NCBI RefSeq assembly: GCF_024199985.1
Contig: NZ_JANARS010000013.1
Location: 1-64,000, forward strand
DNA length: 64,000 nt
DNA from: Nocardioides pinisoli
GTDB lineage: Bacteria; Actinomycetota; Actinomycetes; Propionibacteriales; Nocardioidaceae
Direction of reading: 5' to 3'
The notes beneath the pieces are model-generated. The model ran no database searches. It saw only the letters and a list, made by a program, of their open reading frames with translations, and was not told where the DNA came from. The translations under genes and the position numbers were made by a program. Each line of letters starts with the position of its first letter. Positions within the stretch are counted from its first letter, which is position 1. This document shows positions 7,630 through 44,095 of this stretch, piece after piece.

Positions 7630-9030
7630 TCAGCGTCGCGTTCGGTCGTCCGCCGCTCGTGCAGGCTGACCGTCGGCCACGGCCGCGGCGAACGCCGCGT
7701 GGTCCTGCTCGGTGAGGTCCGCGTAGGTGGTCGCGAAGTCGGCGACCGCCTGGGGCAGGCGGTCGTCGTCCCCGAGGTAGGCGGCGATGGCGATGCGGTC
7801 GCCGGAGCGGGCGTGCGCCCGGGCGAGCGTCCAGGCGCAGAGCCGGGCGTAGAGCCGCAGGCCCTTGGGGGTCAGGCTCTCGACGTCGGGCGATCCCTTC
7901 CAGTCGTGCAGCTGTCGCACGTAGAAGTCGCGTGCCGTGCCGTCGAGGCCCGTGGTGCGGTGCCAGCCGAGGAACACGTCGCTCGCGGCCTGCATGATCC
8001 GCTGCCCGGCCACCACCCGCTCGCCCTGGTTGTCGTACGCCCCGGGGCCGAGGTGGCGCGACAGCACGGAGGCCTGGGCCTCCTTCACCTGCAGGAAGAG
8101 CGGGTCGTCGTCGTCGCGGCCGCGCAGGAGCACGACCCAGCAGCGGGTCCCGACACTGCCGACCCCGACCACCTTGCGCGCCATGTCCACGAAGTCGTAG
8201 GACCCGACGAGCTCGCGGAGGTCGGATCTCAGCGAGGCGACGTAGTCGCGGAGGATGTCGTGCACCCCGCTCTCGATCTCCTCGCGGGACGCGTCGCCGG
8301 CGAGGTGGGACACGGGCACCAGGAGGGGCGGGTCCGCGAGGATCCGTCGCTCGCCGTCGTGGACCTCGGTGAGCTTGTCGAGGCTGCGGAGGTGGTCACG
8401 GGTGCGTGCCTTGTCGACCGACCGGTCGAGCCGCTTGCGGAGCCGGGGATCGAGCTCGTCGCCGAGCTGCTGCCGGACGCCCTCGACGTCCATCCGGGCG
8501 TACCACACGGCCAGGTTGCCCATGCCTGCGAAGGACGTCATGGCGTCGCGGTAGCGGCGGGCCGCGGTGACGGCGAGCTTCCTGTTCTGCTTCTCGGTGA
8601 AGCCGTTGGCCCGACCCGCGACCACCAGGCTCGCCGCCAGCCGTTTGAGGTCCCACTCCCACGGCCCGCGAGCCGTCTCGTCGAAGTCGTTGAGGTCGAA
8701 GACCAGCGTCCGCTCGGGCGAGCCGAACGTGCCGAAGTTGGCCAGGTGGGCGTCTCCTGCGAGCTGGACGTCGAAGCCCGACCGTGGTGTGCCGGCGAGG
8801 TCGCCGGCCATCACGGCCGCGGAGCCCCGGAAGAAGGCGAACGGTGACTCCGCCATCCTGGCGTGACGGATGGGCACCAGCTCGGGCACGCGCGAGGAGT
8901 CCTGGTCCAGCAGGACCCGGACCGGGTCGGGGCGTCCGGCGGTGCCGAGGGCGCCGTGGCCCTCGGGTGGGACCTGCGAGCGGGCGTCGCGGCCGGCCCG
9001 CTCCCGCTCAGCCGGGCTCCGGCCGCCCAT
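7630..9030 (-). CDS. DUF2252 family protein
   Basis: A 466-residue soluble protein of the DUF2252 family, distantly related to the protein-kinase/aminoglycoside-phosphotransferase fold. Key motifs are FRGSAAVMA (about 68), GDAHLANFGTFG (about 91), FDLNDFDETARGPWEWDLKRLAASL (a catalytic-loop-like stretch near 112-135) and HRTTG near 365. The biochemical activity is unknown. It begins 3 bp after the stop of the DUF7144 membrane protein gene, so the two form an operon behind the promoter region at 9559-9655. Confidence 0.85.
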   Translation of the reverse strand: MGGRSPAERERAGRDARSQVPPEGHGALGTAGRPDPVRVLLDQDSSRVPELVPIRHARMAESPFAFFRGSAAVMAGDLAGTPRSGFDVQLAGDAHLANFGTFGSPERTLVFDLNDFDETARGPWEWDLKRLAASLVVAGRANGFTEKQNRKLAVTAARRYRDAMTSFAGMGNLAVWYARMDVEGVRQQLGDELDPRLRKRLDRSVDKARTRDHLRSLDKLTEVHDGERRILADPPLLVPVSHLAGDASREEIESGVHDILRDYVASLRSDLRELVGSYDFVDMARKVVGVGSVGTRCWVVLLRGRDDDDPLFLQVKEAQASVLSRHLGPGAYDNQGERVVAGQRIMQAASDVFLGWHRTTGLDGTARDFYVRQLHDWKGSPDVESLTPKGLRLYARLCAWTLARAHARSGDRIAIAAYLGDDDRLPQAVADFATTYADLTEQDHAAFAAAVADGQPARAADDRTRR

Positions 9031-33476: not shown

Positions 33477-34292
33477 ATGGCCGACCTCGGGTACGACCCT
33501 CGCTTCCTCGACACCGACCTCGCCCCGCCGCAGGCGCCCCCGCCCGGTCCCGACGAGGACCCCGCGCTCGCCACGCCGCTCGACTACGCGCACTTCACGG
33601 TGCGCATGCACCCCGAGCGCCGGCTGGCGTGGTGGGTCGCCTGGAACGTCGACGGCCTGCGCCTGTTCCCCGGCGACAGCATCAGCCGCTCGGGCGAGCG
33701 CTTCCGCCTCGACCCCCGGATCCCGGCCGACGCGCAGACCGGCGAGGAGGCCTACGCCGACAACGACCTCGACCGCGGTCACGTGGCGCGGCGCTCCGAC
33801 CTCCTGTGGGGCACCCTCGCCGAGGCGCAGCAGGCCAGCTCCGACTCGTTCCACTTCACCAACATCACGCCGCAGCACCAGGACTTCAACCAGTCCGGGC
33901 GCGGCGGGGTGTGGGGGCTGCTCGAGAACGCCGTACTGGCCCTCGTGGGGCTGGAGGAGCGGCGCCTGAGCCTCTTCGCCGGCCCCGTGCTCGATCCCGA
34001 GGACCCGCCCTATCGTGGCGTCCAGCTGCCGGTCGAGCACTGGAAGGTGGTCGTCTACCGGCTCGACGGGCGCCTGCGCGCGAAGGCTTTCGTCCTGACC
34101 CAGGACCTCGACGGGCTCGAGCGGGCGGTCCCCGACTTCCTCGACGACTTCGACACCTGGCTCGTGCCGCTCGCGCTCCTCGAGGAGCGCACCGGCCTGA
34201 CCTTCGCGAGCCTGCGCCAGGTCGTCGAGCCGGACGAGCTCCGTCCCGCCAGCCCGGTTCTCGTCACCGACGTCGAGCAGGTCGGCTGGTAG
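33477..34292 (+). CDS. DNA/RNA non-specific endonuclease (NUC/EndoG type)
   Basis: A 271-residue beta-beta-alpha-metal nuclease. The catalytic motif is DLDRGHVARRSD (about 100; His general base), followed by metal-ligand Asn in FHFTNITPQHQDFNQ (about 130). There is no obvious signal peptide, so it may act inside the cell or require another exit route. ATG 33477 lies 5 bp after a GAGACT -10-like element, so the mRNA may be leaderless. Confidence 0.83.
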   Translation: MADLGYDPRFLDTDLAPPQAPPPGPDEDPALATPLDYAHFTVRMHPERRLAWWVAWNVDGLRLFPGDSISRSGERFRLDPRIPADAQTGEEAYADNDLDRGHVARRSDLLWGTLAEAQQASSDSFHFTNITPQHQDFNQSGRGGVWGLLENAVLALVGLEERRLSLFAGPVLDPEDPPYRGVQLPVEHWKVVVYRLDGRLRAKAFVLTQDLDGLERAVPDFLDDFDTWLVPLALLEERTGLTFASLRQVVEPDELRPASPVLVTDVEQVGW

Positions 34293-36577: not shown

Positions 36578-38080
36578 GTGCTGAGCGAGATCGCAGGCGA
36601 GCTGGCGCGCGTCAAGGGTGCCTTCGCGCAACCCACGCTCACCCTGCTCCACCAGCGGCAGGCGCCTGTCGTCATCACGATCTTCCGCACCGCGTTCGGC
36701 CGCACCAACAACCCGATCCCGACGGCGCGGTTGCACACGCAGGTCGAGGAGCACGTCGCCCAGATGAGGCTCGCCGGTGAGCAGGACGTCCCGACCGGCA
36801 CCGGCCGGGAGATCTGCCAGCGCTGGATGCGCGGCCAGTGGCTGGTGCGGTCGCTCGACGAGGCCGGGCACGAGGTCTACGCGCTCACCTCGCACGCGCA
36901 GCAGGCGCTCGAGCTGGTCAAGAACCTGGCCCGTGACCGGGCCACGCTCAGCGAGCACCGGGTGGCGACCATCCTCGGCACGGTCCGGCGCTTCAACTCC
37001 GAGGCCAACCCCGACCGCACCGCCCGCGTCACGATCCTCAACGAGGAGATCGCCCGGCTCCGGGCCGAGCGTGACCGCCTCGTCGACGGTGGCGAGCTCG
37101 AGGGTGCGACCGAGGACTACATGCTCGAGGGCTTCACCGAGCTGCTGTCCCTGATCTCCGCGCTGCCGAGCGACTTCGCCCGGGTGGAGGAGCGCTTCGC
37201 GACCATCAGGGCGGAGATCCTCTCCGCCTTCCGGGCCGAGGACCGTCCTGCCGGCGAGGTGATCGACGACTACCTGGCCCGTGCCGACGCGCTGATGACG
37301 GCGACGCACGAGGGACGCGCGTTCGAGGGCGCGTTCGCGCTGCTGCGCGACGACGCCCTGGTGACGCAGCTGCGCGAGGACCTGACCGACCTGCTCGAGC
37401 ACCCGCTGTCGGACCGCATCCTGAGCGACGCCGACCGGGCCGAGCTGCGGGGCACGGTCCGACTGGTGCGCGACGGTCTCGACCGTGTGCTCGCCCAGCG
37501 GTCGCGGGTGACGGCGACCCTCAAGGAATACATCGTCTCCCACGACGCGGCCCGCGACCGCGAGCTGGAGCAGACGTTGCGCCAGGTGGAGGCCGAGCTG
37601 ATGACGTGGATGGCCACCACGGGCCCGCGCGCCGCCCACGACGTCGCGCTCCTGCCCGCCCGCACGAGCATCGACCACCTCCGCGAGCGCTTCCACGATC
37701 CTGCCGACGACGTGCTGCCCGACCGGATCAGCACGCCCGACCCCGACCTGGCGCCCCCGGTCTCGCTCGCCGAGCTCGTGGCGCAGGGTGGACCCAAGCT
37801 GACGGCGCTGCGGGAGCGGCTCGACGCGGTGCTGAGCTCCCTCCTCCCGGCCGCGTCCTTGGGGGCCCTGTTCGACGGGCTGGAGCCGTCGCTGCGGCGG
37901 CCGGTCGAGATCTTCGGGCTGCTGCACCTCGCAGCCGACCGCGAGTGGCGGCCCGACGACGCCCTGGAGGCGTTCGAGGCCGTCCGGCCCGACGGGAGCA
38001 CGCGGACCTTCGCCGTGCCCCGCACGCCGCTGCCCGACCCCGACCTCGACGAGACCCCCACGACGGAGACCCGCCCATGA
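36578..38080 (+). CDS. jetA: JetA / MksF (DUF3375)
   Basis: A 500-residue protein of the DUF3375 family, the kleisin-like subunit (MksF) of a Wadjet/MksBEF condensin. The start matches the family (ELARVKGAFAQPTLTLLH, IFRTAF). Central segments are coiled-coil prone (ILNEEIARLRAERDRLVDGG). In type I Wadjet, JetA bridges JetC heads with JetB. Start GTG 36578 was chosen over GTG 36521 because of GAGGGA in front and the family start. It overlaps jetB by 4 bp. Confidence 0.85.
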   Translation: MLSEIAGELARVKGAFAQPTLTLLHQRQAPVVITIFRTAFGRTNNPIPTARLHTQVEEHVAQMRLAGEQDVPTGTGREICQRWMRGQWLVRSLDEAGHEVYALTSHAQQALELVKNLARDRATLSEHRVATILGTVRRFNSEANPDRTARVTILNEEIARLRAERDRLVDGGELEGATEDYMLEGFTELLSLISALPSDFARVEERFATIRAEILSAFRAEDRPAGEVIDDYLARADALMTATHEGRAFEGAFALLRDDALVTQLREDLTDLLEHPLSDRILSDADRAELRGTVRLVRDGLDRVLAQRSRVTATLKEYIVSHDAARDRELEQTLRQVEAELMTWMATTGPRAAHDVALLPARTSIDHLRERFHDPADDVLPDRISTPDPDLAPPVSLAELVAQGGPKLTALRERLDAVLSSLLPAASLGALFDGLEPSLRRPVEIFGLLHLAADREWRPDDALEAFEAVRPDGSTRTFAVPRTPLPDPDLDETPTTETRP

Positions 38081-38853
38081 GTGTCGAGACCCATCCCGAG
38101 ACGACCGAGACGACCGATGTGGTCGAGATGGTCGAGATCGACGCCGGGGTCGACGAGGAGCTCCTCGACGAGACGTCCGTCTCGCTGTTCGAGGGCGACG
38201 AGGGCGGCCTCGAGTACGCCCAGCGGCGCGCGCTGGTGACCCTGCTCAAGCAGCGCTTCATCAGCGCCCGCACGCACCCGCGCGACTGGGTCGTGCTCGT
38301 CGAGCACGAGCGCCTCATCCGGTCCCGGCTCAACGACCTCTTCCTCGACCTCCAGCTCGACCGCTCCCGTGAGGTCGCGTGGAAGCGGCAGGCGACGTCG
38401 GAGACCGGCGTCCGCTTCCCGACGATGCTCTACGACGCCGCGTGGTCGCGTGAGGAGACGCTCGTGCTGGTCCACCTGCGCGACCGGCTGCGGGCCGGTG
38501 TGGCGAGCGGGGACGCACGCGTCTTCGTCGACCGCGAGGATGTCGTCGACTACGTCGCGAGCTTCCGGCCCCCGCACGCCACCGACGTCTCGGGCGACGA
38601 CAAGCGGGCGCGTAACGCGATCACCAGCATCGTCAAGGCAGGGCTGCTGATCGGCACCGGGTCCGAGGACCGCTTCGAGATCAGCGAGGCGGTCGAGCCC
38701 CTCATCCCGCTGGAGCTGCTGCAGGAGCTGCTCGAGGCGCTGGTGACTGCCAACGCCGAGGCGCCGGCCGAGCCGGACGACCCGGCCGACCTGTTCGACG
38801 ACGACGCCGACGCGGACCCCGTGGCCGCCGGCGACCCCGCAGAGGAGCAGTGA
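38077..38853 (+). CDS. jetB: JetB / MksE (DUF4194)
   Basis: A 258-residue DUF4194 protein, the KITE-type subunit that pairs with the JetA kleisin. Core: YAQRRALVTLLKQRFISART, WVVLVEHERLIRSRLNDLFL, and FVDREDVVDYVASF. An acidic tail (DDPADLFDDDADADP) closes it. ATG 38077 overlaps the jetA stop. Immediately followed by jetC. Confidence 0.85.
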   Translation: MSVETHPETTETTDVVEMVEIDAGVDEELLDETSVSLFEGDEGGLEYAQRRALVTLLKQRFISARTHPRDWVVLVEHERLIRSRLNDLFLDLQLDRSREVAWKRQATSETGVRFPTMLYDAAWSREETLVLVHLRDRLRAGVASGDARVFVDREDVVDYVASFRPPHATDVSGDDKRARNAITSIVKAGLLIGTGSEDRFEISEAVEPLIPLELLQELLEALVTANAEAPAEPDDPADLFDDDADADPVAAGDPAEEQ

Positions 38854-38855
38854 GC

Positions 38856-41800
38856 ATGTCGATCGACGAGATCGAGCAGACGACGGTCGACGGGCTGTTC
38901 GAGCGCCGCGACGTCGCCACTCCCGCCGACGACACGATGCAGTGGCGGGCGGCGCTGCTGCAGCTGGTCAACTGGGGCGGCTTCGGCGGCCTCACCGTCG
39001 TCCCCCTGCGCGGTGACGCGACGATGATCTCGGGCGCCTCGGGCGTCGGCAAGAGCACGATCCTCGACGCCTACACGGCCCTGATGATGCCGTCGGACAC
39101 CAAGTTCAACGGTGCCTCCAACGACGCCGTCGCGGGCCGCGCCCGCGGTGCGGGTCAGCGCAACCTGCTGTCCTACCTCCGCGGTGCGGTCGACGTCGTC
39201 GACGACGCCCGCACCGGTCGGCCGGTCGAGAAGCTCCTCCGCGGCAAGGGCTCCGACACCTGGGGCGCGATCGCGATGACGTTCGTCAACGACCAGGGTG
39301 GTCGGTTCACCGTGCTCCGCACCTACTACGTCCCGCGGCGCGCGACCCGGTCGGGAGACGTGCAGATGCAGCTGGCCACGCAGGACGGCGCGCTGCCGCT
39401 CGACACGCTCGAGGTCGCCGTGCCGGAGCGGTTCCACGCCAACACGCTGAAGAAGCTGTTCCCCAGCATCCGCGTGCACCGGACCTACGCCGAGTTCGCC
39501 GCCGTGCTCCACGCGCGGCTCGGCATCGGCGCCAACGGCGACGGCGCGAAGGCGCTGCGGCTGCTCGCCCGCATCCAGGCGGGCAACCAGGTGCGCAGCG
39601 TCGACGAGCTCTACAAGGACATGGTGCTCGAGCGGCCCTCGACGTTCGCCGCCGCCGACCGTGCGATCGAGCACTTCGACGACCTCGACACCGCCCACTC
39701 GGCCATGCGCACCGAGGAGCAGAAGCTCGAGCTGCTGGCCCCGATCGCCGACCTCCACGACCGCAAGGTGGCGGCCGGCCGGCGACTCGCGGAGCTCGAC
39801 TCCTACGGCGTGACGCTCGACGGTGACACCCCGCTCCGGATGTGGCTGCTGCGCACCCACCTGCGACTCATCGAGTCGGCCGTGGCCGACAACCGCGCCG
39901 ACCGGGCGTCGGCCGTCGACGAGCTCGGCACGACGACGTCCGCGGAGCGCACCTACCTGGCCGACCTCGAGGCTGCCAAGGAGTCCCACCGGGCGGCCGG
40001 CGGGTCGACGCTCCAGTCGCTCGCGCTGTCGCTGGAGCAGGAGCAGGTCGTCCGCGACGACCGCCTCGCGCGCCGTGAGGTCCTGCAGGAGCGGCTGCTG
40101 CCGCTCATCGACGCGACCGACGCCCAGGCGCCCGACGTCGACGCGGCGTTGCTGTCCAGCGAGTCGTTCGCCGTGCTCCAGATGCACGCCCAGCAGTGGC
40201 TGTCGGGCTTCCAGCGGGAGCAGGAGAGGATCCAGCGCGAGCGTGACGCCGTGCTCCGCGACCAGTTCCCGCTCAGCGCGCGTCAGGCCGAGCTGCGCCG
40301 CGAGCGGGCGTCGCTGGAGAGCCGTGCCGGCCGGGTGCCGGTCCGGATGGACGAGCTGCGCGCCGAGGTCGCGCGCGCCAGCGGGCTCGACGTGGACGAG
40401 CTGCCGTTCGTGGCCGAGCTCGTCGACGTCGCACCCGACGAGGCCCGGTGGCGCACGGCCGTCGAGACGGTCCTCGGCGCGAGCGCGCGGATGATGCTCG
40501 TGCCGCTCGACCGGCTCGAGGGCTTCTCCGCCGCGATCGACGGGCTGCGGCTCCGCGGCCGGCTCACCTTCGAGGGTGTCGAGCTCGACCTCCCCGACCT
40601 CGGCCCCGCCGATCCCGAGCGGATCGCCGGCAAGCTGGTGTTCAAGGACTCGCCCTTCTCGGGCTGGGTGCAGGCCCACGTCGGCGAGCCGTCCCGCAAC
40701 GCGCTCTGCGTGGAGTCGGCCCACGAGCTCGCAGGCGCCGGCTTCCGGGTCACCGTCGAGGGCCAGACGCGCAACGGTCGTCGCGGCGCCCACGGACGCA
40801 ACGACACCCGCAGCATCATCGGGTTCTCCAACGCCGACGCGATCGCCGAGGTCGACGCCGAGCTCGCCGACCTCGAGGAGCGGCTCGACGGCGTCGGCGC
40901 CGAGGTCGCCCAGCTCGACCGGCGGTCGCGGGTGCTGGAGCAGCAGCGCACGTCCTACGACGTGCTCGTCGCAGCACGCTTCGACGACCTCGACGTCGAC
41001 GCCAGCGACCGGCGCATCGCCGACCTCGAGCGGCGGCGCTCCGAGATCCTCGAGTCCGACGACGGGCTCCAGGCGCTGGAGGCGCAGATCGCGGAGCTCA
41101 CGACACGGCTGGAGGAGACCCGGCGGGCCCGCTACGCCGTCGAGCAGCGGCAGCGCGAGCTCAACGCCGCCCACGGCGACCTCGTCGACGCCGAGGACGT
41201 CGTCAAGGACCGGCTCCAGGCGATGGAGGACGCCGGCGAGGTCGTGCTCAGCGCGGAGCAGGAGGCCGCCCTCGCGGTCGACTTCGCCGCCGCCGCCTCG
41301 CCCGCGGACCCCGACGACCTCGACCGGTTCGCCGAGTCGTCCCAGCGGCTCGCCGAGCGGCTCCGGGCGGCGGTCGGCGACGCCGAGGCCGAGCTCCGAC
41401 GCGTGGACGAGGACCTCGCGCAGGTGTTCCGGGTCTACAAGCTCCAGTGGGACTCGCCCAACCTCGGCGCCACCGCGGACTCCTACCCCGACTACGCACG
41501 CATCCTCGACGACATCCGCGGGGAGGGTCTGGCCGCTCGGCGGTCCGAGTGGCGACGCCGTCTCACGGAGTGGAGCGGCCAGGACCTGGTGCCCCTCGTC
41601 GGCGCGATGGCCGCCTCCGTCGAGGAGATCGAGGACCGGCTCGAGCCGATCAACGCCATCCTGAGGCGCCTGGAGTTCGGTGCGTCCGGCGACCGGCTCA
41701 GGATCCGCCTGCGTCGTCTGGCGCCCGCCCACGTGCAGACGTTCATGAAGGACCTGCGCACCCTCTCGTCGGGCTCGACGACCGAGATCGACGAGGAGGC

Positions 41801-42332
41801 CCTCGAGAAGCGCTTCGCCGAGCTCAGCAGGTTCATGCAGCAGCTGCGCAAGCCGAGCCAGGTCGGCGACGTGGCCACCTCGCTGACCGACCGCGAGCGC
41901 CTGCTCGACGTACGTCGCCACGTCGAGGTCAGCGCCGAGCGCTACGACCACACCACCGGCGAGCTGCGCGCGACCTACCGGACGCTGGGGGAGAAGAGCG
42001 GAGGCGAGAGCCAGGAGCTGGTCGCGTTCATCGTCGGCTCCGCCCTCCGCTTCCGGCTGGGCGACGAGATGCGGTCGCGACCGCGGTTCGCCCCGGTCTT
42101 ACTCGACGAGGGCTTCGTCAAGGCCGACTCCGAGTTCGCCGGTCGCGCGGTCCAGGCGTGGCGCGGGCTCGGGTTCCAGCTCATCGTCGGGGTCCCGCTC
42201 GACAAGGTCACCGGCCTCGAGCCCCACATGGACGAGCTGCTCGCCATCACCAAGAACAGCACCACCCACCAGTCCTGGATCACGCCCATCACCGACGCGG
42301 CGACGGTTGCCGCGGCGGAGGGCCGGGACTGA
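38856..42332 (+). CDS. jetC: JetC / MksB, SMC-like ATPase
   Basis: A 1158-residue SMC/SbcC-like ATPase. Walker A is ISGASGVGKSTILDAY (about 60). Long coiled-coil arms cover roughly 220-480 and 640-900. The ABC signature is LGEKSGGESQELVAF (about 1045) and Walker B PVLLDEGFVKADSEF (about 1080). It is the motor of the condensin complex. ATG 38856 has GAGGAG upstream; GTG 38850 overlaps the jetB stop. JetD, the nuclease that normally follows, is missing. Confidence 0.88.
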   Translation: MSIDEIEQTTVDGLFERRDVATPADDTMQWRAALLQLVNWGGFGGLTVVPLRGDATMISGASGVGKSTILDAYTALMMPSDTKFNGASNDAVAGRARGAGQRNLLSYLRGAVDVVDDARTGRPVEKLLRGKGSDTWGAIAMTFVNDQGGRFTVLRTYYVPRRATRSGDVQMQLATQDGALPLDTLEVAVPERFHANTLKKLFPSIRVHRTYAEFAAVLHARLGIGANGDGAKALRLLARIQAGNQVRSVDELYKDMVLERPSTFAAADRAIEHFDDLDTAHSAMRTEEQKLELLAPIADLHDRKVAAGRRLAELDSYGVTLDGDTPLRMWLLRTHLRLIESAVADNRADRASAVDELGTTTSAERTYLADLEAAKESHRAAGGSTLQSLALSLEQEQVVRDDRLARREVLQERLLPLIDATDAQAPDVDAALLSSESFAVLQMHAQQWLSGFQREQERIQRERDAVLRDQFPLSARQAELRRERASLESRAGRVPVRMDELRAEVARASGLDVDELPFVAELVDVAPDEARWRTAVETVLGASARMMLVPLDRLEGFSAAIDGLRLRGRLTFEGVELDLPDLGPADPERIAGKLVFKDSPFSGWVQAHVGEPSRNALCVESAHELAGAGFRVTVEGQTRNGRRGAHGRNDTRSIIGFSNADAIAEVDAELADLEERLDGVGAEVAQLDRRSRVLEQQRTSYDVLVAARFDDLDVDASDRRIADLERRRSEILESDDGLQALEAQIAELTTRLEETRRARYAVEQRQRELNAAHGDLVDAEDVVKDRLQAMEDAGEVVLSAEQEAALAVDFAAAASPADPDDLDRFAESSQRLAERLRAAVGDAEAELRRVDEDLAQVFRVYKLQWDSPNLGATADSYPDYARILDDIRGEGLAARRSEWRRRLTEWSGQDLVPLVGAMAASVEEIEDRLEPINAILRRLEFGASGDRLRIRLRRLAPAHVQTFMKDLRTLSSGSTTEIDEEALEKRFAELSRFMQQLRKPSQVGDVATSLTDRERLLDVRRHVEVSAERYDHTTGELRATYRTLGEKSGGESQELVAFIVGSALRFRLGDEMRSRPRFAPVLLDEGFVKADSEFAGRAVQAWRGLGFQLIVGVPLDKVTGLEPHMDELLAITKNSTTHQSWITPITDAATVAAAEGRD

Positions 42333-42532
42333 CCTCACCGGTCGTCCGGCTCGTCGGGCACGGCCAGGTCGACCCCGAGCCCTCGGGGGCCCGGCTCCGG
42401 GGGGCACTTCGGCCCTGCCCCGGGCCACGCGGGTGTCGAACGATGGAGGGGAGAGACCGCGTGGGCCGATGAGCGCCGTCGGGCCTGACCGAGCGCCCGC
42501 GGTGGGCCTGCGCGCCGGACGAAGGAGCAAGG

Positions 42533-42880
42533 ATGAACGTCGACGAGATCGTCAGCACGGCGAAGGACGCCATCACCGTCAAGCGGATCTACGGGGAGCC
42601 CTACCAGCGCGACGGCGTGACCATCATTCCCGTCGCATCCGTCGCCGGTGGGTTCGGCGGTGGGACCGGGACGGACGAGAAGGGCCAGAACGGCGAGGGC
42701 GGCGGGTTCGGCATGACCGGCCGTCCGGTCGGGATGTACGTCATCAAGGGCGACGCCGTGACCTGGCGGCCCGCCGTCGACCCGGTCCGCCTGCTCACGG
42801 TGATCAGCACCTTCAGCGCTGGCGGCAGGAGGGGGGTGGCGAGCTTGAGCATCCCCTGCGGGCGGAACTCCGCGCGATAG
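42533..42880 (+). CDS. GerW/YtfJ family protein, C-terminus replaced
   Basis: A 115-residue protein starting like the GerW (sporulation YtfJ) family: DEIVSTAKDAITVKRIYGEP, YQRDGVTIIPVASVAGGFGG and VGMYVIKGDAVTWRPAVDP. The family normally continues with a hydrophobic helix, but here the sequence changes at about 42800 into SAGGRRGVASLSIPCGRNS, which is the antisense of the convergent SRPBCC gene. The gene has thus been cut and fused. Nocardioides-like bacteria do not make spores; the role of GerW proteins here is unknown. Confidence 0.65.
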   Translation: MNVDEIVSTAKDAITVKRIYGEPYQRDGVTIIPVASVAGGFGGGTGTDEKGQNGEGGGFGMTGRPVGMYVIKGDAVTWRPAVDPVRLLTVISTFSAGGRRGVASLSIPCGRNSAR

Positions 42881-43188
42881 GTGACGCGCACCAGGTCGCC
42901 GTCCTGGTCGACCTGGATGCTGTCGTGCATCTCCATGGAGGACGTCTCGCCGTCGAGCTCCAGCCGGCGTGGGGGCTCGTGCACCACGACGGTGTAGATG
43001 ATCTCGGTGTCGCTGCCGAGCACTCGCGAGATGTTGCGGTAGCGGGTTCCCACGCCCCCGTCGCCCGCGATCCGCTCCGTGGTCCGGGTGGGCGGATCCC
43101 ACTGCATGGTCGTGGTGAAGTCGGCCAGGAAGGCGAACACGTCCTCCTGCCGGCCGCGAACGGTGACGGTTCGTTCGATGTGCGGCAC
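42601..43188 (-). CDS. SRPBCC (START/Bet v1-like) domain protein, C-terminus replaced
   Basis: A 195-residue protein. Residues 1-125 form an SRPBCC fold (IERTVTVRGRQEDVFAFLAD, TTMQWDPPT, FRPQGMLKLATPLL), a lipid-binding or cyclase-like cavity. After about residue 128 the family should end with a final helix, but here it runs antisense through the GerW gene (VSRRTGSTAGRQVTASPLMT). That tail is probably junk added by the deletion that joined the two genes. GTG 43188 has a ribosome binding site, GAGGAG. Confidence 0.65.
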   Translation of the reverse strand: MPHIERTVTVRGRQEDVFAFLADFTTTMQWDPPTRTTERIAGDGGVGTRYRNISRVLGSDTEIIYTVVVHEPPRRLELDGETSSMEMHDSIQVDQDGDLVRVTYRAEFRPQGMLKLATPLLPPALKVLITVSRRTGSTAGRQVTASPLMTYIPTGRPVMPNPPPSPFWPFSSVPVPPPNPPATDATGMMVTPSRW

Positions 43189-43270
43189 GATGCGCTCCTC
43201 ACGTGGTCGTGCCCTCGGTACCCGTCTCCGGTTCACCCATCCGCCGACCGGCCGTTGCGGCAGCTCCGGA

Positions 43271-44095
43271 TCAGGCAGCGGACAGGGGCTCGGACAGGTC
43301 GGTGCGCAGCCGCGCGAGCAGCCGGGTGATGGTCCGGGACACCTGTGCCTGCGTCAGCCCGACGAGGCCGGCGATCTCGCGCTGGGTGAGCTCCTCCACG
43401 AACCGCCACCGGAGGATCTGGCGATCCCGCTCGGTCAGGCGGCCGACCGCAGAGTCGAGCACGAGCCTGGCCTCGAGGGACGCGAAGCCGCGGTCCTCGC
43501 CTCCCAGCACGTCGGCGATGGTGCCGCCGTGCTGGTCACCGGCGCTGCTGTCGATCGAGGCGGGCCGGAAGCAGCCGTCGGCCGCGAGCGCCTCCACGAC
43601 GTCGTCCGGGTCGGCTCCCAGGTGGACGGCGATCTCGGACGGCCGCGGCGAACGTCCCAGCAGGGCCTCGAGCTCGTGCTGGCTCGCGCGGATCCGGGAC
43701 TGCAGCTGCTGCACGCTGCGCGGGACGCGGATCATCCAGCCCGAGTCGCGGAAGTGCCGGCGCAGCTCCCCGCGAACGGTCGGGACCGCGTAGGACATGA
43801 AGTCGTGCCCGGCGAAGGGGTCGAAGCGGCGGGCCGCCTTGACGAGGCCGACGAGGGCGACCTGCTCCAGGTCGTCGACGTCGATGCCGCGGTTGCGGTA
43901 GCGGGCTGCCAGGGAGCGCGCGACCGCGACGTTGGTGGCGATGAGCTCGTCCACGAGCTCCCGTCGCGCCGCGTCCGACGTCGCGCGCTGCAGCTCGTCG
44001 ACGATGGAGGCGGTCCGTCGTGCGCGCTCGTCGCGCTCGGCCTGCGCGGGTGACGCGTCGTGGGGCGGGTGCGGGGGCATCGCGAGGGTGGTCAC
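43271..44095 (-). CDS. SigB/SigF-type RNA polymerase sigma factor
   Basis: A 274-residue group 3 sigma factor with regions 2, 3 and 4: NVAVARSLAARYRNRGIDVD / DLEQVALVGLVKAARRFDP (region 2), YAVPTVRGELRRHFRDSGWM (region 2.4-3), and RQILRWRFVEELTQREIAGL (region 4). SigF-type factors drive general stress and envelope responses and usually have an anti-sigma partner; none is beside it. GTG 44095 was chosen for its ribosome binding site (GAAGGAG). The upstream element at 44181 is shared with the region 4-only gene, suggesting autoregulation. Confidence 0.85.
   Translation of the reverse strand: MTTLAMPPHPPHDASPAQAERDERARRTASIVDELQRATSDAARRELVDELIATNVAVARSLAARYRNRGIDVDDLEQVALVGLVKAARRFDPFAGHDFMSYAVPTVRGELRRHFRDSGWMIRVPRSVQQLQSRIRASQHELEALLGRSPRPSEIAVHLGADPDDVVEALAADGCFRPASIDSSAGDQHGGTIADVLGGEDRGFASLEARLVLDSAVGRLTERDRQILRWRFVEELTQREIAGLVGLTQAQVSRTITRLLARLRTDLSEPLSAA

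What the first reader, a model, noticed from the sequence alone, without database searches (positions are those of the whole stretch)
36578..42332. JetA-JetB-JetC condensin without the JetD nuclease
Genes for DUF3375, DUF4194 and an SMC-like ATPase overlap in the order of type I Wadjet. The fourth gene, jetD (DUF3322/DUF2220), which cleaves plasmid DNA, is not in the next 200 bp nor elsewhere in the window in any frame. The next gene is a GerW-type protein. Either it is an MksBEF-type chromosome condensin, the nuclease is elsewhere, or the system uses another nuclease. The DNA-entry nuclease at 33477 and the EF-G-like gene sit just before it, which may be chance.
Basis: partly seen in the sequence, partly recalled or inferred. 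Interest (0 to 1): 0.6.

Follow-up and report, generated by a model that had tools for sequence, protein, structure and literature searches.

The report
Wadjet DNA motor without its nuclease
This soil bacterium (genus Nocardioides) carries the complete DNA-looping motor of a plasmid-destroying defence system but not the enzyme that cuts the plasmid, and about half of the sampled species of its genus carry the same cutter-less motor, kept intact by selection and passed between species, so the motor must do something useful without cutting through that enzyme.

Summary
Observation confirmed. jetA, jetB and jetC (window 36578-42332, overlapping start/stop codons, all ATPase motifs intact) are a type I Wadjet core. 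No JetD (PF09983, PF11795, or a close JetD protein) is found anywhere in the complete 4.5 Mb genome. This is not a local accident: 96 of 150 Nocardioides genomes have JetA, 78 of those have no JetD at all, and only about 18 of 106 JetA loci have a JetD next to them. The JetD-less trio is under strong purifying selection (JetA/JetC dN/dS about 0.05-0.2). It also moves horizontally: the JetC tree contradicts both the Smc and rpoB trees. JetD is an on/off cassette: in two separate lineages syntenic relatives differ only by JetD between jetC and the next gene. No other nuclease consistently takes its place. Best reading: a nuclease-free, MksBEF-like accessory loop-extruding condensin, additional to the genome's own Smc-ScpAB. 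Whether it acts on the chromosome or silences plasmids without cutting is unresolved. MksBEF-by-JetD-loss is already proposed for Pseudomonas, so this is a new variant of a known kind.

The parts
36578..38080 (+). jetA / mksF-like kleisin (DUF3375), alternative upstream start 36521
   Evidence: Pfam E 5.8e-109, PADLOC JetA1 638 bits; codon-bias gene call 36578
38077..38853 (+). jetB / mksE-like KITE subunit (DUF4194); start overlaps the jetA stop
   Evidence: Pfam E 1.7e-36, PADLOC JetB1 414 bits; profile matches PDB JetB 9qxt/8as8/8dk1
38850..42332 (+). jetC / mksB-like SMC ATPase, 1160 aa; Walker A GASGVGKST (residue 62), signature KSGGESQ (1049), Walker B VLLDEGF (about 1084)
   Evidence: PADLOC JetC1 1432 bits full length; PDB 8as8, 8dk2 JetC; motifs
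42333..42532 (+). the slot where jetD sits in JetD-positive relatives; here no JetD or JetD remnant
   Evidence: tblastn of three JetDs finds nothing; whole-genome searches negative

Best explanation
This is an intact type I Wadjet motor core (JetA kleisin, JetB KITE, JetC SMC) that has no JetD nuclease. It belongs to a Nocardioides family of JetD-less JetABC operons. SHOWN by sequence: the trio is complete, its ATPase motifs are intact, it is under purifying selection, it is transferred between species, and JetD is an optional gene present or absent exactly after jetC. INFERRED: the complex binds ATP, loads on DNA as a dimer of SMC dimers and extrudes loops as Wadjet and MukBEF do, but the step in which JetD cuts a fully extruded circle is missing. 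Its output is therefore DNA compaction or looping, as in the MksBEF condensin of Pseudomonas aeruginosa, added to the genome's own Smc-ScpAB. Whether the main substrate is the chromosome or incoming circular DNA is left open.
For: Complete subunits and motifs. No JetD in the 100%-complete genome, with a positive control. JetD-less in 78 of 96 JetA-positive Nocardioides genomes, many of them single-contig. dN/dS of JetA and JetC 0.05-0.2 in 13 JetD-less pairs, comparable to flanking Pta and AckA and to the JetD-positive pair. JetC tree conflicts with Smc and rpoB trees, AU p 3.7e-4, 1.7e-7 and 3e-7, among genomes that all lack JetD: a unit that spreads and is kept must pay for itself. Own genome also has Smc and ScpA. 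Precedent: MksBEF of P. [quoted passage not shown] PMC7485682).
Against: Patchy occurrence, horizontal transfer and changing genomic location look more like a defence system than a housekeeping condensin. The JetD-positive MksBEFG of the actinobacterium C. glutamicum has no effect on chromosome folding (PMC7083940). The conserved N-terminal JetB segment LF/WEGDEG is as well kept in JetD-less as in JetD-positive operons, so partner binding may persist. There are no functional data.
Confidence: 0.5

Rival explanations
1. Nuclease-free plasmid restriction: JetABC still senses and extrudes circular foreign DNA but disables it by compaction, blocked transcription or mis-segregation, in the way Smc5/6 silences extrachromosomal circles, not by cutting.
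For: Defence-like evolution: present in 96/150 congeners, different genomic sites, horizontal exchange of a JetD-less unit. Strong selection on the motor. Smc5/6 and MksBEFG comparison discussed in PMC7083940 and PMC10586767.
Against: Review literature states that all four subunits are needed for plasmid restriction when tested in B. subtilis (PMC10586767). No plasmid data for Nocardioides.
Confidence: 0.22
2. JetABC uses a different, non-homologous nuclease or effector encoded elsewhere in the genome.
For: JetD itself is evidently exchangeable, and the JetB N-terminal segment is still conserved without JetD.
Against: No nuclease family recurs next to the operon: downstream genes are thioesterase, nitrile hydratase, DDAH, patatin, Na/Ca exchanger and so on; 38 of 77 loci have an opposite-strand neighbour. 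The one SbcD neighbour (L034) appears to be a normal sbcDC operon. The window's PF01223 endonuclease is shared with only three close relatives.
Confidence: 0.15
3. A resident motor on standby: JetABC is kept as the platform of an intermittent JetABCD defence, losing JetD when it is costly and regaining it by transfer.
For: JetD present/absent at identical junctions in L025 vs L036/L019/L023/L050 and L129 vs L146/L148. The L129 JetD has GC3 0.77 against 0.935 for JetC and 0.90-0.93 for flanks, suggesting recent gain. JetD of L022 is interrupted by an insert with stop codons, suggesting loss in progress.
Against: A mere standby motor should decay between JetD episodes, yet dN/dS is low across long JetD-less stretches of the tree. 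JetD-positive loci are only about 17%.
Confidence: 0.08
4. Decaying remnant of a Wadjet operon.
For: A few loci have broken genes: L054, L060, L061 jetC with frameshifts or stops; L031 jetA with an internal stop.
Against: Intact frames and ATPase motifs in nearly all loci; purifying selection; horizontal spread.
Confidence: 0.05

Closest known systems
Type I Wadjet (JetABCD / MksFEBG / EptABCD)
   Same: JetA, JetB, JetC families, gene order and overlaps; same PADLOC type I profiles; relatives such as L131, L025 and L043 have jetD in the canonical fourth position
   Different: No JetD in the operon or the genome; hence no known plasmid-cutting step
MksBEF condensin of Pseudomonas aeruginosa (JetD-less MukB-like SMC)
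   Same: Three-subunit MukB-like SMC complex without MksG, coexisting with Smc-ScpAB; proposed in a review to descend from JetABCD by JetD loss
   Different: Window JetC matches the PADLOC JetC1 profiles; close JetD-bearing relatives exist in the same genus, JetD comes and goes, and the unit is horizontally exchanged; chromosome role not shown
MksBEFG of Corynebacterium glutamicum
   Same: Actinobacterial JetABC homologue next to a separate Smc-ScpAB
   Different: C. glutamicum keeps MksG and uses it against plasmids, with no chromosome-folding role (PMC7083940, PMC10123090)

Membership tests
Type I Wadjet (JetABCD) | JetA (DUF3375), JetB (DUF4194), JetC SMC-like ATPase in one operon in that order | tested here: met
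Type I Wadjet (JetABCD) | JetD nuclease (DUF3322 + DUF2220/JetD_C Toprim) | tested here: not met
   No PF09983, PF11795 or JetD protein hit in the whole genome; control rings
Type I Wadjet (JetABCD) | Restriction of small circular plasmids by cleavage | not testable with these tools
   needs an experiment
MksBEF condensin | MukB-like SMC + kleisin + KITE operon without nuclease | tested here: met
MksBEF condensin | Functional SMC ATPase motifs (Walker A, signature, Walker B) | tested here: met
MksBEF condensin | Occurs beside Smc-ScpAB | tested here: met
   Smc at G000:C11:77993-81544 and ScpA at G000:C18:147441-148103; ScpB not searched
MksBEF condensin | Acts in chromosome organisation or segregation | not testable with these tools
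   needs Hi-C or ChIP and deletion phenotypes
Wadjet JetD docking | JetB N-terminal IFDR motif that contacts JetD (PMC10586767) | tested here: inconclusive
   A conserved N-terminal LF/WEGDEG segment is kept equally with and without JetD, but its equivalence to IFDR could not be shown

The most novel reading that the evidence does not exclude
A JetD-less Wadjet motor that defends by itself: JetABC in Nocardioides recognises and fully extrudes small circular DNA and silences or mis-segregates it without cutting, a bacterial counterpart of Smc5/6 restriction, with JetD as an optional add-on blade that is gained and lost at a fixed slot.
Probability: 0.2. Interest if true: 0.8.

Novelty: new variant of a known kind. 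Interest (0 to 1): 0.52.

Why it matters
It is an open question whether MksBEF-type condensins arose from Wadjet by losing the nuclease, and whether the Wadjet motor does anything without JetD. Nocardioides offers a natural experiment: dozens of closely related JetD-less operons, a few JetD-bearing ones, and syntenic pairs that differ by the jetD gene, all in one genus with a separate Smc-ScpAB. That makes both questions directly testable with matched strains and purified complexes.

Tried and rejected
JetD elsewhere in the genome: rejected. JetD remnant between jetC and the next gene: none found by tblastn in the window or other JetD-less loci. Replacement nuclease linked to the operon: rejected as a general rule. 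EF-G/endonuclease association: rejected beyond nearest relatives. Plasmid-borne origin: plasmid records hold only JetC relatives below 60% identity. Purely vertical inheritance: rejected. A first ORF clustering with mirror-strand ORFs was uninformative and was replaced by codon-bias gene calls. A first rpoB tree mixed strands and is void; redone. I first suspected that L025's JetD was acquired horizontally because it is only 57% identical to L043's while JetC is 89%, but a careful tree groups L025 with L031/L043 (75/82 support), so that argument was dropped. Direction of JetD change stays open: parsimony prefers few gains, whereas strict loss needs about 21 events, yet the JetDs of this clade are monophyletic. 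JetA, JetB and JetC identities correlate (r 0.78-0.81), so the trio mostly travels together, though not perfectly.

Full report
What is there. Three overlapping + strand genes lie at 36578-42332. They match DUF3375, DUF4194 and SMC-type ATPase models in Pfam and JetA1, JetB1 and JetC1 in PADLOC with 638, 414 and 1432 bits over their full lengths. JetC aligns end to end with the solved JetC chains 8as8 and 8dk2, and a JetB profile finds solved JetB chains. Walker A, signature and Walker B motifs are intact. jetA ends at 38080 and jetB starts at 38077; jetB ends at 38853 and jetC starts at 38850.

JetD is really absent. The window lies in a Nocardioides genome (nearest loci are Nocardioides) of 4,534,944 bases in 18 contigs, scored 100% complete. 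Neither JetD_C (PF09983) nor DUF3322 (PF11795) is found anywhere in it, while the control genome C. glutamicum rings for both. A Nocardioides JetD protein finds nothing at E up to 10. No JetD remnant is seen in the locus. The genome does have the ordinary Smc and ScpA, so JetABC is an extra SMC complex.

It is a genus-level pattern. Of 150 Nocardioides genomes, 96 have JetA but only 21 have any JetD. By my count from those tables, 78 JetA-positive genomes have no JetD at all, and about 18 of 106 JetA loci have a JetD within a few kilobases. In a sample of 297 genomes of the phylum only 10 have JetA, and 7 of the 12 JetA loci there have JetD nearby. In the JetC tree the window sits in a clade of about 70 loci in which nearly all are JetD-less and the JetD-bearing ones (L022, L025, L031, L043, L131, and L133 at the base) are scattered.

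JetD is an on/off cassette. L025 reads jetC-jetD-OG19, while its relatives L036, L019, L023 and L050 read jetC-OG19 with about 30 bp or less between the genes. In a second, distant JetC lineage L129 reads jetC-jetD-OG45, while L146, L147 and L148 read jetC-OG45. Evidence on direction is mixed. The L129 JetD has GC3 0.765 against 0.935 for its JetC, which suggests a recent gain. The L022 JetD is interrupted by an insert with stop codons, which suggests a loss under way. JetDs of the window clade are monophyletic, which fits old presence with repeated loss, but strict loss needs about 21 events.

The JetD-less trio is functional. For 13 JetD-less species pairs dN/dS is 0.06-0.2 for JetA and 0.05-0.15 for JetC, similar to neighbouring Pta and AckA and to the JetD-positive pair L031/L043. 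It also spreads. In Smc and rpoB trees the window genome groups with G007, G012 and G022; in the JetC tree it groups with G010 and G008, and AU tests reject the alternatives (p 3.7e-4 for JetC, 1.7e-7 for Smc, 3e-7 for rpoB). None of these genomes matched JetD in the survey. Outside close relatives the operon lies in different neighbourhoods. A three-gene unit that is exchanged between species and then kept by selection must confer something without JetD (inference).

No substitute nuclease is linked. Genes just downstream are unrelated from lineage to lineage and half of them face the other way. L034 has SbcD next to jetC, but it is followed by an SbcC-like gene, a normal sbcDC arrangement. 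The non-specific endonuclease and EF-G-like gene upstream of the window's jetA recur upstream only in the closest relatives. Known defence profiles do not mark an island around the window's operon (the weak MzaA and DrmC hits fall on a sigma factor and a PLD-domain protein).

How it most likely works. The published mechanism of Wadjet is loop extrusion by JetABC, followed by JetD cleavage when a small circle is fully extruded (PMC10586767; PMC12647877). Here the last step is missing. The closest characterised precedent is P. aeruginosa MksBEF, which lacks the nuclease, is thought to derive from JetABCD by JetD loss, and works in chromosome organisation and segregation beside Smc-ScpAB. I therefore favour a nuclease-free accessory condensin. 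The patchy, mobile distribution keeps alive the alternative that it disables circular DNA without cutting. No tool here can decide between these.

Kind and novelty. It fails the defining JetD test of Wadjet, so it should not be filed as a Wadjet defence system; it works like, and probably is, a Wadjet-derived MksBEF. That idea exists in a review, so the class is known. What I did not find in the papers searched is a genus-wide, horizontally exchanged JetD-less JetABC with JetD gained and lost at a fixed slot; that literature search covers open-licence papers only.

Noticed in passing
window 42533-42880 (+) and 42601-43236 (-): The GerW/YtfJ-like ORF and a convergent Polyketide_cyc2 (SRPBCC) ORF overlap tail to tail by about 280 bp; both conserved domains end near 42780-42800 and each C-terminal tail is antisense to the other gene, as if a deletion removed both stop codons.
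   Followed up: partly
window 42333-43273; same interval in L001, L018, L026, L051: Between jetC and a conserved convergent sigma-factor gene the nearest relatives carry different cargo (GerW+SRPBCC; oxidase and PAS genes; glycosyltransferase operon; or nothing, with abutting stop codons in L026), so the jetD slot looks like an insertion hotspot.
   Followed up: partly
L022:13386-14834: jetD is interrupted by an insert of roughly 160 bp with stop codons, after VPVEGLG; a nuclease gene apparently broken while jetABC is intact.
   Followed up: partly
L129:10371-11555: JetD has much lower GC3 (0.765) than its JetC (0.935) and flanking genes, suggesting recent acquisition of the nuclease alone into a JetABC locus.
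   Followed up: partly
L011, L037, L044 (upstream), L020, L052, L059, L060 (downstream of jetC): A small (about 120-130 aa) protein with only a very weak, sub-threshold Peptidase_S24-like resemblance lies close to JetABC on the same strand in seven loci, on either side; no significant Pfam match.
   Followed up: partly
L031 jetA (7956-7960), L054, L060, L061 jetC: A few loci have a stop codon or frameshifts in jetA or jetC, from decay or assembly error.
   Followed up: no
G013 and other Nocardioides genomes: Some genomes carry up to three different JetABC(D) systems, for example G013 with three JetA loci and three JetDs.
   Followed up: no
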